From the NCBI RefSeq assembly GCF_017993425.1, contig NZ_JAGOMQ010000004.1, positions 1 to 64,000 of the forward strand: DNA of 64,000 bases, written 5' to 3'. Numbering within the stretch: position 1 is the first letter of the stretch; the number at the start of each line of letters is the position of its first letter. The stretch is from Amaricoccus sp. GTDB taxonomy: Bacteria > Pseudomonadota > Alphaproteobacteria > Rhodobacterales > Rhodobacteraceae. Below, in pieces: positions 8,078-44,147 of this stretch. A program made the translations under genes and the position numbers. The notes beneath the pieces are model-generated. The model worked only from the letters and a program-made list of their open reading frames with translations, was not told where the DNA came from and ran no database searches.

Positions 8078-8140
8078 GCGAGAAATCAACCACTTAGCGA
8101 ATTTTCACGCATGAACACCCCCCGTCCACGCGCGGCTTGC

Positions 8141-9524: not shown

Positions 9525-10361
9525 ATGGACGACAGCGCGCACCAGACCGTCGAAGATGGCGCGCGCGGGGCCGGCGTCTACCGCGTCTCCGACGTGGCGC
9601 GGATGATCGGGGTCTCCGCCTCGACGCTGCGGCTCTGGGAGATGCAGGGCCTGCTCGCGCCCCGCCGCACCGCGAGCGGCCAGCGCCGCTACGCCGAGGA
9701 CGACCTGGAGCGCGCCCGCCGCGTCGCCTGGATGCGCGGCGAGGGCGGGCTCGCGCCCCGGGCGATTCGCGCGGCCCTCGCCGGCCCGGCCGACGAGCCC
9801 GGCCCCGACGCCCCCGAGACCGGCGAGGCGCTCGGCCGCCGCCTGCGCGCGCTCCGCCACGCCGCCGGGCTGACGCTGGAGAAGGTCGCCGCCGAGGTCG
9901 GCGTCGCCCCCTCCGCCCTCTCGACGCTGGAGCGCACCTCCCGCGGCGTCAGCTTCGGCGCGCTCCACCGCATCGCCGCCTTCTACGACACCACCGTCTC
10001 GGCCCTGTCGCTCTCGCCCGGCCCGGCGACCGAGGTGGTCCGCGCCCGAACCTGGCGCACCTGGCCGGCGACCGTCCCCGGCGTCACCGTGCAGCTCCTC
10101 GCCGAGGGCCTGCGCCAGATGGACTGCCACCGCTTCGTGCTCGCCCCCGGCGCCGGGAGCGAGGGCGCCTACGCCCATGACGGCGAGGAATTCCTCCACA
10201 TCCTGTCCGGCCGGCTGGAGGTGACCCTCGACGGCGCCGACCGCCACGAGCTCGACCCCGGCGACTCGATCTACTTCGAGAGCCGCCGCCACCACGCCTG
10301 GCGAAACGCCAGCGACGGCGAGACCGTGCTCCTGTGGATCAACACGCCCCCGACGTTCTGA
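9525..10361 (+). CDS. MerR-XRE-cupin three-domain transcriptional regulator
   Basis: This 278-residue DNA-binding protein appears to carry two different helix-turn-helix domains. Residues about 18-85 are MerR-like (YRVSDVARMIGVSASTLRLW, then RRYAEDDLERA). Residues about 105-160 are an XRE/HTH_3 domain (LGRRLRALRHAAGLTLEKVA, then PSALSTLERTSRG). Residues about 185-275 are a cupin_2 sensor (HDGEEFLHILSGRLEV, then LDPGDSIYFESRRHHAWRN). The XRE-cupin part resembles PuuR-type regulators of putrescine and GABA use, which suits the divergent gabT. The MerR part is an unusual addition. The ligand is unknown; GABA, a polyamine or an amino acid is the natural guess. Autoregulation is likely through the shared gap. 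Confidence 0.85.
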   Translation: MDDSAHQTVEDGARGAGVYRVSDVARMIGVSASTLRLWEMQGLLAPRRTASGQRRYAEDDLERARRVAWMRGEGGLAPRAIRAALAGPADEPGPDAPETGEALGRRLRALRHAAGLTLEKVAAEVGVAPSALSTLERTSRGVSFGALHRIAAFYDTTVSALSLSPGPATEVVRARTWRTWPATVPGVTVQLLAEGLRQMDCHRFVLAPGAGSEGAYAHDGEEFLHILSGRLEVTLDGADRHELDPGDSIYFESRRHHAWRNASDGETVLLWINTPPTF

Positions 10362-10454
10362 CGCGGGAGACGCGGCGACACAGGGTTGCGCACGCGCAAC
10401 CCTGATCAACTGATTGAATTATATGATGTATTTTGAATCCCTTTACGCGATGGC

Positions 10455-10795
10455 CACACTGCACGACAGTGGAGAGGAAGCCCGGCCCCGAGGCTGGCCG
10501 CGACGGTGACGCCAGACGGATTTGACCCGTGGCAAATCCGTCTGCGATCGCCCCTGCGGGGGGCGAGCGCGATTCCGCGCTCGCCGGGGCGCTCACGGAC
10601 GGATGGCGCGCTCCCGGAGAAATCGGCGCCCCTCACGGCTTCCGCGCCAACGCGCTCCAGCCGTCGGCGCGGCGAAAGCCGTGCTTTCGCCTGTCGCGCC
10701 GGGCCTCGCGGGCAAGCCCGCTTCGGTCGGTCGGTCGGTCGGCCAGCGCGCGCGCCCCGTGGATCCAGCAGAGCAGACAGGTGTCGTGCAGTGTG
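10455..10795 (+). mobile_element. Repeat copy A: complete MITE-like element with TIRs and target duplication
   Basis: This 341-bp noncoding element has 14-bp perfect terminal inverted repeats: CACACTGCACGACA at 10455-10468 and its complement at 10782-10795. The same 9 bp, CGCGATGGC, flank it at 10446-10454 and 10796-10804 and look like a target-site duplication. The core at 10516-10730 is shared with three other places in the window. It contains nested hairpins: ACGGATTTG with CAAATCCGT, GGCGAGCGCG with CGCGCTCGCC, and GCGAAAG with CTTTCGC. A short CGGT run lies at the core's right end. No transposase is present, so it would need one in trans. It lies between the MerR-XRE-cupin gene and dapE. 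Confidence 0.75.
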
Positions 10796-10804
10796 CGCGA
10801 TGGC

Positions 10805-11058: not shown

Positions 11059-12204
11059 ATGACCGATCCCGTCGCGCTCACCGCCGAGCTGATCCGCTGC
11101 CCCTCCGTGACCCCGGAGGAAGGCGGCGCGCTCGCGCTCCTCGCCGCGCGCCTCGAGGCCGCCGGCTTCCGCGCTGTCCGCTGCGACCGCGGCGGCGTCG
11201 CCAACCTCTACGCCCGCTGGGGCGACGCCCGCCCCGTCCTCGGCTTCAACGGCCATACCGACGTCGTCCCGACCGGCGACCCCAAGGCCTGGCGCCACCC
11301 GCCCTTCGCCGCCGAGACCGCCGACGGCTGGCTCTACGGCCGCGGCGCCGCCGACATGAAGTCCGGCGTCGCCGCCTTCGTCGCCGCCGCGATCGACTTC
11401 GTCACGGCCACGCCCCCGGCGGGCTCCATCGCCCTCCTGATCACCGGCGACGAGGAGGCCGCCGCCGTCGACGGCACCGTGGCGATCCTCGACTGGATGG
11501 CGGCGAACGGCGAGGCGCTCGACCACTGCATCGTCGGCGAGCCCACCTCCGCCGAGCGCACCGGCGACGCCATCAAGATCGGCCGGCGCGGCTCGCTCAC
11601 CGCGCGCATCGCCGCCTACGGCAAGCAGGGCCACAGCGCCTATCCCGAGAAGGCGCTGAACCCGCTGCCCGCCCTCGTCCGCCTGCTCGACCGCCTCGCC
11701 GCGCGCAAGCTCGACGGCGGCACGAAGCATTTCGGCCCCTCGACGCTGGCGCTGACCACCGTCGACGTCGGCAACCCGGCCTCGAACGTCATCCCGGCCG
11801 AGGCCCACGCCACGCTCAACATCCGCTTCAACGACGCCCACAGCTCCGCCTCGCTCTCCACGTGGATCGAGGAGGAGGCCGACCGCGTCGCCGCCGAGTT
11901 CCGCACCGGGCTCGCCGTCCGCTTCGAGGTCTCCGGCGAGAGCTTCCTGACGAAGCCCGGGCCGTTCACCGACCTCGTCGTCCGCTCGGTCGCGGCCGAG
12001 ACCGGGATCACGCCGGCGCTCTCCACCACCGGCGGCACCTCCGACGCCCGCTTCGTCAAGGACCACTGCCCGGTGGTCGAGGTCGGCCTTCACGCGCCGA
12101 CCATGCACCAGACCGACGAGCGCGTCGCCGTCGCCGACATCGAGACGATGAAGCGGGTCCACGCCCGCATCCTCGCCGACTACTTCGCGGCGCCGCCGGC
12201 ATGA
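11059..12204 (+). CDS. dapE: Succinyl-diaminopimelate desuccinylase
   Basis: This 381-residue cytosolic dizinc peptidase (M20) hydrolyses N-succinyl-LL-diaminopimelate in lysine and peptidoglycan precursor synthesis. Visible motifs are [14 protein letters not shown] (metal His and catalytic Asp), [11 protein letters not shown] (bridging Asp), [13 protein letters not shown] (catalytic and metal Glu), the dimerisation domain with [20 protein letters not shown], and the late metal site MHQTDERV. The length is standard. The ATG at 11059 follows GAGGCAGCC. Its stop overlaps the next start by four bases (ATGA), so the two genes are translationally coupled. Other dap genes are not in view. Confidence 0.95.
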
Positions 12205-23995: not shown

Positions 23996-24187
23996 GTGCG
24001 GGTCCCCGGGGCGAAGCGGCGGGGTATCACGTCGCGGAAGAAACGGAAAGCGCGCGGCTTCGGGCGGCGAGGCAGCGCATCTCGCGAGGCGGTTTTCACT
24101 TCGAGGTTCCGTCGCCCCCGAACCGCTCCGAACAGTTCGGCATACACCTGTCCGCCTTCCCAAGGGGTTTGGTGAGCCGCTGGGCCG

Positions 24188-24403
24188 CCGACCGAAGCGG
24201 GCTCTGCCCGCGAGGCCACGGCGCGACAAGCGAAAGCACGGCTTTCGCCGCGCCGACGGCCGGAGCGCGGTGGCGGGGAGGCCGTCAGGGGTCGAGATTT
24301 CTCCGGAAGCGCGCAATCCGTCCGTGGTCGCCCCGGCGAGCGCGGAATCGCGCTCGCCCCCCGAGGGGCGATCGCGGACGGATTTGCCACAGGTCAAATC
24401 CGT
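24188..24403 (-). repeat. Repeat copy B: core of the dispersed hairpin element
   Basis: This 216-bp core is homologous to 10516-10730 in reverse orientation, with the same nested hairpins. Similarity continues a little on each side (GGCCGCGACGGTGAAGCCA on the complement, and ACACCTGTC near 24143-24151). Clear terminal inverted repeats and a target duplication were not found, so the ends seem eroded. It fills the 509-bp gap between cysS and the Sua5 gene; the rest of that gap shows no gene. Confidence 0.8.
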
Positions 24404-24504
24404 GTGGCTTCACCGTCGCGGCCCATTCATCCCGGTCCGCGGCTTCACCCGAAATGCGGGCGCCGCCCGCTCTGCGCCGGCCGTCGCAACCCGCACCCGC
24501 GCCG

Positions 24505-37616: not shown

Positions 37617-37934
37617 CCAACTTCACGACTCTGCCCGCCCGCAGGACAAAGAACCGTCGACCGACCGAAGCGGGCTTGCCCGCGAGGCCACGGCGCGACA
37701 AGCGAAAGCAAGGCTTTCGCCGCGCCGACGGCTGGAGCGCGGTGGCGCGGAAGCCGTGAGGGGCGCCGATTTCACCGAACCACGCAATCCGTCCGTGAGC
37801 GCCCGGCGAGCGCGGGATCGCGCTCGCCCCCCGCGGGGCGATCGCGGACGGATTTGCCGCGGGTCAAATCCGTCTGGCTTCGGGCGTTGCGGCCAACCTT
37901 CGGGCCGGGACCCTCTCCACCGTCGTGCAGCGCG
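37617..37934 (-). repeat. Repeat copy C: near full-length dispersed element, ends decayed
   Basis: The core at 37661-37873 matches copy A in reverse. Homology continues outward to CGTCGTGCAGCGCG at 37921-37934, which differs from the copy A terminal repeat at three of fourteen bases. The other end, CCAACTTCACGACT at 37617-37630, matches at ten of fourteen. No target duplication is visible, so this is an older copy. It lies between the rimP promoter and the Fe-S protein gene. The AT-rich run just beyond 37934 is outside the element. Confidence 0.7.
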
Positions 37935-43528: not shown

Positions 43529-43830
43529 GGGGCGACTCCCGGTGGAATTGGCGCTGTCTTGGGTTTGGGGGAGAAGTAGCGGGAAGGCTTGGGTTTTTCG
43601 GAGCTGGAAACGGGCTGGAATGCGGCTGGAATCCGGCTTGCCATTTCGAGCTTCCGGGCAGGTCTAGGGGCCGTCCGGTCGCCGGAGGCGCCCGGCCGGG
43701 CCGGGCTCGGGCGCCGGAGGCCGGAGCCGCCGGGGTCTGCGGAGGGCATCGGCGCGCCGGACTCGGGGCGATCGCAGATCCCGGCTGAAACGGCGGATCG
43801 GGTCGGAACAGGGCGTGACCTCGAAGCCCG
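43529..43830. other. GC-rich gap between repeat copy D and the permease genes
   Basis: No gene is seen. The sequence is rich in C/G runs around 43680-43735 and could fold strongly. It is the leader of the downstream permease pair (minus strand), so any secondary promoter would lie here or within the repeat. Confidence 0.4.
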
Positions 43831-44046
43831 ACGGATTTGACCCGTGGCAAATCCGTCCGCGATCGCCCCTGCGGGGGGCGAGCGCGTCGCCGCGCTCGCC
43901 GGGGCGATCACGGACGGATGGCGCGCGACGGGGAAATCTTCACCCCCCACGGCCTCCGCGCCAACGCGCTCCAGCCGTCGGCGCGGCGAAAGCCGTGCTT
44001 TCGCTTGTCGCGCCGTGGCCTCGCGGGCAGAGCCCGCTTCGGTCGG
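43831..44046 (+). repeat. Repeat copy D: core inserted in the sugar ABC operon
   Basis: This 216-bp core is closely similar to copy A in the same orientation, with all hairpin arms kept (ACGGATTTG/CAAATCCGT, the GGCGAGCGCG arm, GCGAAAG/CTTTCGC). Terminal repeats and a target duplication were not found. A short hairpin (TGCCGG/CCGGCA) lies just right of it. It lies between the ATPase gene and the two permease genes, antisense to the operon's direction of transcription. Confidence 0.82.
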
Positions 44047-44147
44047 CTGGATGCCGGCTTCATCCGGCACGGGCAGGCAGGCGCCGGCGATGCTGGCGCG
44101 CCGGGCCGCCGGGCGCGACCTCTGGGCGAGGGGAGCAGGCGCAGGGG

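What the first reader, a model, noticed from the sequence alone, without database searches (positions are those of the whole stretch)
10446..10804. A MITE-like element with perfect TIRs and a 9-bp target duplication
Copy A is 341 bp long, starts and ends with CACACTGCACGACA and its exact complement, and is flanked on both sides by CGCGATGGC. These are the hallmarks of a cut-and-paste insertion, yet the element encodes no transposase. I do not recognise it as a named element. The perfect ends and duplication suggest movement recent enough that an active transposase with the same ends may exist elsewhere in the genome.
Basis: seen in the sequence. Interest (0 to 1): 0.75.

Follow-up and report, generated by a model that had tools for sequence, protein, structure and literature searches.

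The report
Mini-transposon family that targets palindromes
This 341-letter gene-less stretch is one of at least 90 copies of a small element in an Amaricoccus-like bacterium; they were likely moved by the enzyme of a separate jumping gene that has the same ends, and over half of them sit at about the same distance from a short palindrome.

Summary
It is one of 90 two-ended copies (at most 4 mismatches per end) among 140 core copies examined in the genome. 67 of the 90 carry 8-10 bp target duplications (1.1% in shuffled pairs); one other copy has empty sites in its own genome and in a congener.

The predicted mobiliser is an IS4-family insertion sequence with the same 13-bp ends. In congener G007, 4 of 4 left ends pair with a right end through a perfect 9-bp duplication, and one copy has an open 368-aa IS4 transposase frame.

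Three things go beyond an ordinary MITE. (1) 50 of 90 copies have a perfect palindrome centred 58-64 bp from one end (4.8% at random positions); 44 of these 50 share one motif with an IHF-type site. Some copies of the IS show the same spacing, on other palindromes in congeners. (2) The interior is a ~225-bp structured repeat with compensatory changes, found in 6 of 11 genus genomes and seen without these ends in sister species. (3) The same core also sits between a second set of ends.

New variant of a known kind. Movement and palindrome recognition are inferred, not shown by experiment.

The parts
10446..10454 (.). left 9-bp target duplication CGCGATGGC
10455..10468 (+). left terminal inverted repeat CACACTGCACGACA; its first 13 bp fit the ends of the IS4-family IS (CACACTRCACGAC)
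10455..10795 (+). 341-bp non-autonomous element, end type A
10508..10732 (+). structured core (model R1, 224.7 bits; this sequence is one of the 15 the model was built from); compensatory changes in several hairpins across copies
10782..10795 (-). right terminal inverted repeat
10796..10804 (.). right 9-bp target duplication
10381..10404 (.). perfect palindrome CAGGGTTGCGC-AC-GCGCAACCCTG, stem 11, centre 62 bp from the element's left end: the inferred target landmark; about 20 bp after the stop codon that ends at 10361
37659..37881 (-). another core copy with decayed type-A ends (best left end at 37921-37934 has 3 mismatches)
24186..24411 (-). core copy whose left flank resembles a decayed type-B end (by eye)
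43823..44048 (+). core copy whose left flank resembles a decayed type-B end (by eye)
8083..8115 (-). T-type palindrome/IHF-like target motif (4 mismatches) with no element next to it (unoccupied)
9525..10361 (+). upstream gene: by eye a helix-turn-helix plus cupin-type regulator (no family search made)
11059..12204 (+). downstream gene: dapE-like by recall (no family search made); its relatives place the genome next to Amaricoccus

Best explanation
The window element is one of at least 90 two-ended copies of a non-coding element that were likely moved in trans by the transposase of an IS4-family insertion sequence that has the same 13-bp ends, shows 9-bp target duplications like theirs, and in part of its copies sits at the same distance (about 60 bp) from a palindrome. 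Shown in sequence: the shared ends, the duplications, an empty site for one copy, the spacing to a palindrome for 50 of 90 copies and for some copies of the IS, and a structured core that is seen without these ends in sister species and with a second set of ends in this one. Inferred: the transposase pairs the two ends, cuts the element out, and captures target DNA about 51-60 bp from the axis of a palindrome (directly, through a cruciform, or through a bound host protein, with IHF-type bending between the two); the core spread as cargo after being enclosed by IS ends, and ends were probably swapped by recombination between cores.
For: Ends: the IS left ends on contigs C8, C19, C22, C23 and C101 and right ends on C24, C65 and C99 start CACACTACACGAC. 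Duplications: 67 of 90 two-ended copies have 8-10 bp with at most 1 mismatch (41 perfect, 36 of these 9 bp) against 1.1% of shuffled flank pairs; the IS in congener G007: 4 of 4 left ends match one of 7 right ends by a perfect 9-bp repeat, 3 right ends unmatched. Transposase: open 368-aa frame in G007, NF033591 IS4 at 193 bits (cut-off 152) and PF01609. Empty site: the copy on C46 is missing in its own genome (L174, 78 of 89 columns) and in G007 (L285, 74 of 91 bases without gap), each with one 8-base target that differs at one base. Targeting: palindrome (stem at least 6) centred 58-64 bp from an end in 50 of 90 copies; random window positions 4.8%; six other 7-bp distance windows 1 to 10 of 90. 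A 26-base motif with an IHF-type site lies in a flank of 49 of 90 copies (at most 8 mismatches), 46 of them at 30-35 bp; 2,000 random window positions never came below 10 mismatches. The IS shows it too: the C8 and C19 copies have the same motif at 33 and 32 bp (2 of 8 own-genome ends); in relatives 6 of 15 IS ends, in G007 and G004, have a stem of at least 6 at 60-62.5 bp, on other palindromes, against 3.1-3.5% of random positions; two of the six are the two sides of one insertion.
Against: No complete IS copy is assembled in the own genome: only ends at contig breaks and 78 residues of the transposase, so a working enzyme there is not shown. In the own genome only 1 of 15 left/right end pairings gives a duplication, and it is 8 bp; in G004 two left ends and one right end do not match. 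23 of 90 copies show no duplication; tandem copies explain a part (of the 70 not in tandem 15 show none). 40 of 90 copies lack a palindrome at 58-64 bp; 44 of the 50 that have one share a single motif, and among the 41 copies without it only 6 have a palindrome there (15%, all with stem at least 7, against 1.5-2.9% at random positions); a wider window (54-67 bp, looser loops) gives 12 of 41 against 13.5%. With a stem of at least 7 the overall count is 9 of 90 against 1.5-2.7%. 9 of 15 relative IS ends and 6 of 8 own IS ends lack the spacing. Ends and IS share only 13-14 bp. The nulls come from window positions (also AT-rich ones), not from matched intergenic sites across the genome.
Confidence: 0.87

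Rival explanations
1. The copies are moved by some other enzyme, for example the Tn5-like IS behind the type-B ends or an unassembled IS, and the shared 13-bp ends with the IS4 element are a coincidence of related ends.
For: No intact IS4 gene is assembled in the own genome; a second IS4-type element with other ends lies at C67:371-1862.
Against: Type-B ends (CTACGGCATTCACAC) are unlike type-A ends, and none of 10 type-B copies shows the palindrome spacing (best stem 5), while the IS with A ends shares ends, duplication length and, in part of its copies, spacing.
Confidence: 0.07
2. It is a REP/BIME-type palindromic repeat spread by a RAYT tyrosine transposase, not a DDE-transposon derivative.
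For: The interior is a chain of hairpins, one of them ending in CGTC; alphaproteobacterial CGTC repeats are described as lacking a dedicated transposase (PMC3733652, passages seen).
Against: Y1_Tnp (PF01797) is found in 0 of 11 genus genomes while the control rings in 5 of 14 named genomes; inverted ends with 9-bp duplications are not expected of RAYTs (recalled).
Confidence: 0.03
3. The core is a functional RNA or regulatory element kept by selection (for example 3'-end processing or termination), and the transposon ends only help it to spread.
For: Compensatory changes: 12 pairs against 6.8 in shuffles, 38 cells against 12.2; 6 of 11 genus genomes carry it. Of 82 A copies with enough flank 39 lie between convergent genes, 33 in tandem, 2 between divergent genes, 5 inside an ORF, 3 undecided; the window's own gaps are 6 convergent, 16 tandem and 5 divergent of 27 (rough gene calls).
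Against: The count of further pair types does not exceed shuffles (29 against 28.1). No Rfam family reaches its threshold in the element. Copy numbers swing from 0 to at least 150 between congeners. Paired arms can also be kept by DNA-level processes, and tolerance of insertion explains the location.
Confidence: 0.3
4. The palindrome motif is not a target but part of a larger unit that was copied together with the element.
For: 57 of 70 distinct motifs in the fetched stretches lie next to an A end (the sample is biased towards cores).
Against: The duplication lies between motif and element; the motif is on either side (left 26, right 21, both 1, neither 42 of 90); 13 of 70 motifs have no recognisable A end (several of these abut a core with decayed ends), one of them at 8083 in the window; palindromes of other sequence occur at the same spacing, also beside the IS in congeners.
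Confidence: 0.06

Closest known systems
Bacterial MITEs of type II (ends shared with an IS, interior not), for example RUP with IS630-Spn1 (PMC10969869, PMC2229807; passages seen)
   Same: Short, non-coding, inverted ends, target duplications, many copies, ends match an IS, a transcript would form stable stem-loops.
   Different: GC-rich, mostly 9-bp duplications with IS4-family ends, spacing to a palindrome; one core shared by two sets of ends and by copies without them in sister species.
ISRm22, an IS4-family element of Sinorhizobium meliloti that inserts into REP palindromes (PMC1525189; abstract and passages seen)
   Same: IS4 family, palindromic target, alphaproteobacterium.
   Different: ISRm22 inserts at the axis of the palindrome with 6-bp repeats; here the insertion is about 60 bp from the axis with mostly 9 bp duplicated, and the palindrome's sequence varies.
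CGTC-type REP repeats of alphaproteobacteria (PMC3733652; passages seen)
   Same: Hairpin repeats without a dedicated transposase; hairpin 1 of the core ends in CGTC.
   Different: Those are single short stem-loops or dimers of them; the core here is about 225 bp with several hairpins. The link is a lead only, not tested.
Tn5/IS50 group of IS4 (recalled)
   Same: 9-bp duplication; the type-B IS has a transposase part matching NF033590 (IS4) at 130 bits, below the cut-off of 160.
   Different: The type-A transposase matches another IS4 model (NF033591).

Membership tests
MITE (non-autonomous DDE element) | terminal inverted repeats and no transposase gene | tested here: met
   28 of 90 copies have identical 14-bp ends, 29 differ at one base, 33 at two to five
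MITE (non-autonomous DDE element) | target duplication of one length | tested here: met
   67 of 90 copies, mostly 9 bp, some 8 or 10, against 1.1% in shuffled pairs
MITE (non-autonomous DDE element) | many dispersed copies | tested here: met
MITE (non-autonomous DDE element) | autonomous element with the same ends | tested here: met
   ends only in the own genome; end-to-end element with open transposase frame in congener G007, with other sequence inserted between its left end and the gene
MITE (non-autonomous DDE element) | mobilised in trans | not testable with these tools
   needs a transposition assay
IS4 family (the presumed mobiliser) | IS4 transposase profile above curated cut-off | tested here: met
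   NF033591 193.1 bits, cut-off 152; PF01609 51.1 bits, cut-off 23; protein of congener G007
IS4 family (the presumed mobiliser) | Y-(2)-R-(3)-E-(6)-K signature (recalled) | tested here: met
   YRKRWAIECLFGDTK read by eye in the translation
IS4 family (the presumed mobiliser) | duplication of about 9 bp or more (recalled) | tested here: met
   4 of 4 G007 left ends paired by perfect 9-bp repeats; the single own-genome pair has 8 bp
REP/RAYT system | Y1 tyrosine transposase in the genome | tested here: not met
   PF01797 in 0 of 11 genus genomes
known Rfam RNA family | score above gathering threshold | tested here: not met

The most novel reading that the evidence does not exclude
An IS4-family transposition system that chooses targets by shape rather than letters: it measures about 60 bp from the axis of whatever palindrome a species carries between its genes (TTCACG|CGTGAA, GTATCACG|CGTGATAC, GCTAACACG|CGTGTTAGC, GTCCCCA|TGGGGAC, TGTCCCGC|C|GCGGGACA and others), across an IHF-type bend, and has packaged a genus-wide structured repeat as cargo, which a second IS family packaged independently.
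Probability: 0.35. Interest if true: 0.78.

Novelty: new variant of a known kind. Interest (0 to 1): 0.62.

Why it matters
It gives a bacterial MITE with a named, testable mobiliser, a precise empty site, and a measurable target rule (a set distance from a palindrome, seen with different palindromes in congeners). That rule could explain how such elements reach harmless intergenic landing places. The core shows that one structured repeat can be enclosed by two different sets of transposon ends, a route by which REP-like repeats without a transposase of their own could be mobilised; for alphaproteobacterial CGTC repeats PMC3733652 leaves that open (passages seen).

Tried and rejected
Plasmid collection searched with the element and with an uninterrupted target repeat: no match (records very near this genome may be left out there). 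Viral contigs searched with an exact form of the target motif: none. Rfam on the element: three weak hits below threshold. An IS1595-family element first looked like a second carrier of the same ends; reading C65 showed that it is nested inside the IS4-type IS near its right end, with an 8-bp repeat AATTTAAG read by eye, so it does not share the ends. A further end-like stretch on C17 (L164, CACATTGCACGACG) was translated but not followed up. RAYT rejected. Empty site for the window copy: not shown, because in the two nearest relatives read (L059, L060) the sequence upstream of the downstream gene differs. Five other copies (L010, L157, L186, L195, L197) align across the junction with L202, but loosely (71-79%, with gaps in the two printed), and I do not count them as empty sites. 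The type-B IS on C67 shows no duplication at its flanks (by eye). Ends of core copies in sister species: looked for by eye, no consistent inverted ends seen. Not in print: searches with Amaricoccus plus MITE (0 papers), IS4 plus MITE (6 listed), palindromic MITEs, other ends wording, Amaricoccus and transposases, target wording (and 98 with 0 papers); I saw listings and starts of abstracts, and nothing there describes this family. Only the held open-licence library was searched.

Full report
Observation. The finding is exact: 9-bp repeats CGCGATGGC at 10446-10454 and 10796-10804, 14-bp perfect inverted ends at 10455-10468 and 10782-10795, element of 341 bp. The genome, contig C17 of an unnamed 4.24-Mb assembly, belongs next to Amaricoccus: the best relatives of the downstream gene are Amaricoccus MAGs at 87% and 78%.

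Copies. The element DNA finds many near-full copies in its own genome, the best 97% identical (only 40 candidates were scored). The 14-bp end occurs 163 times with up to one mismatch against 1 for the reversed control. From the stretches fetched (and search loci) I collected 140 distinct core copies: 90 have type-A ends on both sides (at most 4 mismatches in 14 each), 10 type-B ends on both sides, 25 one recognisable A end (8 of these at contig ends), 1 one B end, 14 neither.

Insertion. Of the 90 A copies, 41 have a perfect duplication (36 of 9 bp, 3 of 8, 2 of 10), 26 one mismatch, 23 none; shuffled flank pairs give 1.1%. 20 of 90 abut another copy or IS end at 7-10 bp; among the 70 others 55 have the duplication. 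The copy on C46 has an empty site in its own genome (L174, 78 of 89 columns) and in congener G007 (L285, 74 of 91 bases, no gap), each with one copy of the 8-base target at one mismatch.

Mobiliser. At several contig ends of the own genome the same 13 bp open a different sequence: five left ends that run into a frame beginning MSHRAVAALSR, and three right ends CACACTACACGACTCCC. Homologous ends occur in congeners G003, G004 and G007. In G007 one copy spans left to right end (3,856 bp, because other sequence with, by eye, transposase-like frames lies between its left end and its gene) with an open 368-aa IS4 transposase frame. All 4 G007 left ends pair with one of 7 right ends through a perfect 9-bp repeat; 3 right ends find no partner. 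In G004 two left ends and one right end do not match, and in the own genome 1 of 15 left/right pairings matches, over 8 bp (C23 with C65). Both sides of that IS are type-A elements, and their outer flanks also match over about 9 bp by eye, so a MITE-IS-MITE array in one target is likely, though the contigs are not joined in the assembly. A relative of this transposase at E of at most 1e-20 is found in 4 of 61 genomes searched, the own genome and G007 included.

Target choice. 49 of 90 copies have, in one flank, GTGAAAATTcgCTAAGcCATTGATTT with up to 8 mismatches, 46 of them 30-35 bp from the element end; 2,000 random window positions never came below 10 mismatches. In the hits it points the same way towards the element and lies on either side of it. 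Its complement holds the IHF consensus WATCAANNNNTTR (recalled): a perfect match lies 30-45 bp from an end in 43 of 90 copies, against one in the 64-kb window. The motif overlaps the palindrome TTCACG|CGTGAA. Over all 90 copies, 50 have a perfect stem of at least 6 centred 58-64 bp from an end; the null is 4.8%, and six other distance windows give 1 to 10 of 90. Of these 50, 44 are among the 49 with the motif; of the 41 copies without it 6 have another palindrome there, all with stem at least 7, one of them the window copy. That is 15% against 1.5-2.9% at random or AT-rich window positions, but a wider window gives only 12 of 41 against 13.5%. The IS shares the spacing in part: two of eight own-genome IS ends have the motif at 33 and 32 bp, and in the relatives 6 of 15 IS ends (in G007 and G004; none for the one G003 end; two of the six are the two sides of one insertion) have a stem of at least 6 at 60-62.5 bp, on other palindromes, against 3.1-3.5%. 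In the 10 type-B copies the best stem there is 5. Of 70 distinct motifs in the fetched stretches 57 are followed by an A end, 51 of them at 32-35 bp, and 13 are not; the sample is biased towards cores. The motif was not found in 80 named loci of relatives, in the plasmids or in viral contigs.

Core. The interior about 225 bp also occur without type-A ends: two degenerate copies in the window and 11 in congener G006 that were aligned. Across 15 sequences the hairpins keep pairing: 96.1% of cells paired, 12 pairs with changes on both sides (6.8 in shuffles), 38 such cells (12.2), and 37-48% pairing when slid; the number of further pair types does not exceed shuffles. The structure was derived from the same alignment, which favours it. 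With the model, 6 of 11 genus genomes have copies: own at least 150, G006 25, G007 21, G003 16, G004 4, G005 4, none in five. In a spread of 120 family genomes, 3 others have one or two weak matches. The exact A end occurs 0 to 4 times in each of the ten other genus genomes, so the packaging of the core in these ends looks special to this species.

Second ends. Ten core copies carry other ends, CTACGGCATTCACAC on the left and CTAGCGAATTCACAC on the right (allowing mismatches), 8 of 10 with 9-10 bp duplications at no more than 1 mismatch (shuffled 11%). A 1,492-bp element on C67 has such ends (CTACGGCATTCACAC and CTACCGGATTCACAC) around a transposase in two overlapping frames that matches an IS4 model below its cut-off; its flanks show no duplication. 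A copy on C101 has one A end and one B end, and by eye some B copies sit inside the second hairpin of another core. Swapping of ends by recombination between cores is my inference.

Known and new. Bacterial MITEs with IS ends are known, and so is an IS4 element that inserts into REP palindromes at their axis (PMC1525189, abstract and passages). I found no description of an offset of about 60 bp from palindromes of changing sequence, nor of one structured core in two sets of ends, in the searches listed under Tried and rejected. The mobilisation, the role of IHF and any function of the core remain untested.

Noticed in passing
L213:about 128-2140 (own genome, C65): An IS1595-family insertion sequence (PF12762 and PF12760) with a further open frame downstream of its transposase (by eye), nested in the right end of the IS4-type IS with an 8-bp repeat AATTTAAG.
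   Followed up: partly
L202:785-941; flanks of L197, L186, L010: Another interspersed repeat of about 160 bp in this genome: target palindrome plus a right part with a GGTTGACATGCGCATGTCAACC-like palindrome; several A elements seem to sit in its middle.
   Followed up: partly
window 24186-24411, 37659-37881, 43823-44048: Three more core copies in the window with decayed ends.
   Followed up: yes
L279, L284, L285, L302 (G007 and G004, assignment inferred from the order of loci): Species-specific versions of the core with very different letters but a similar hairpin layout; how they spread is unknown.
   Followed up: no
L145, L231 (G007), L289 (G003, assignment inferred): GTCCCCATGGGGAC palindromes recur in congeners near IS ends and a core; their function is unknown.
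   Followed up: no
L152, L181, L305, L200, L005 (own genome): Tandem copies of the element with nearly the same 8-9 bp between and outside them in some cases, as if a second insertion hit the duplication of the first.
   Followed up: partly
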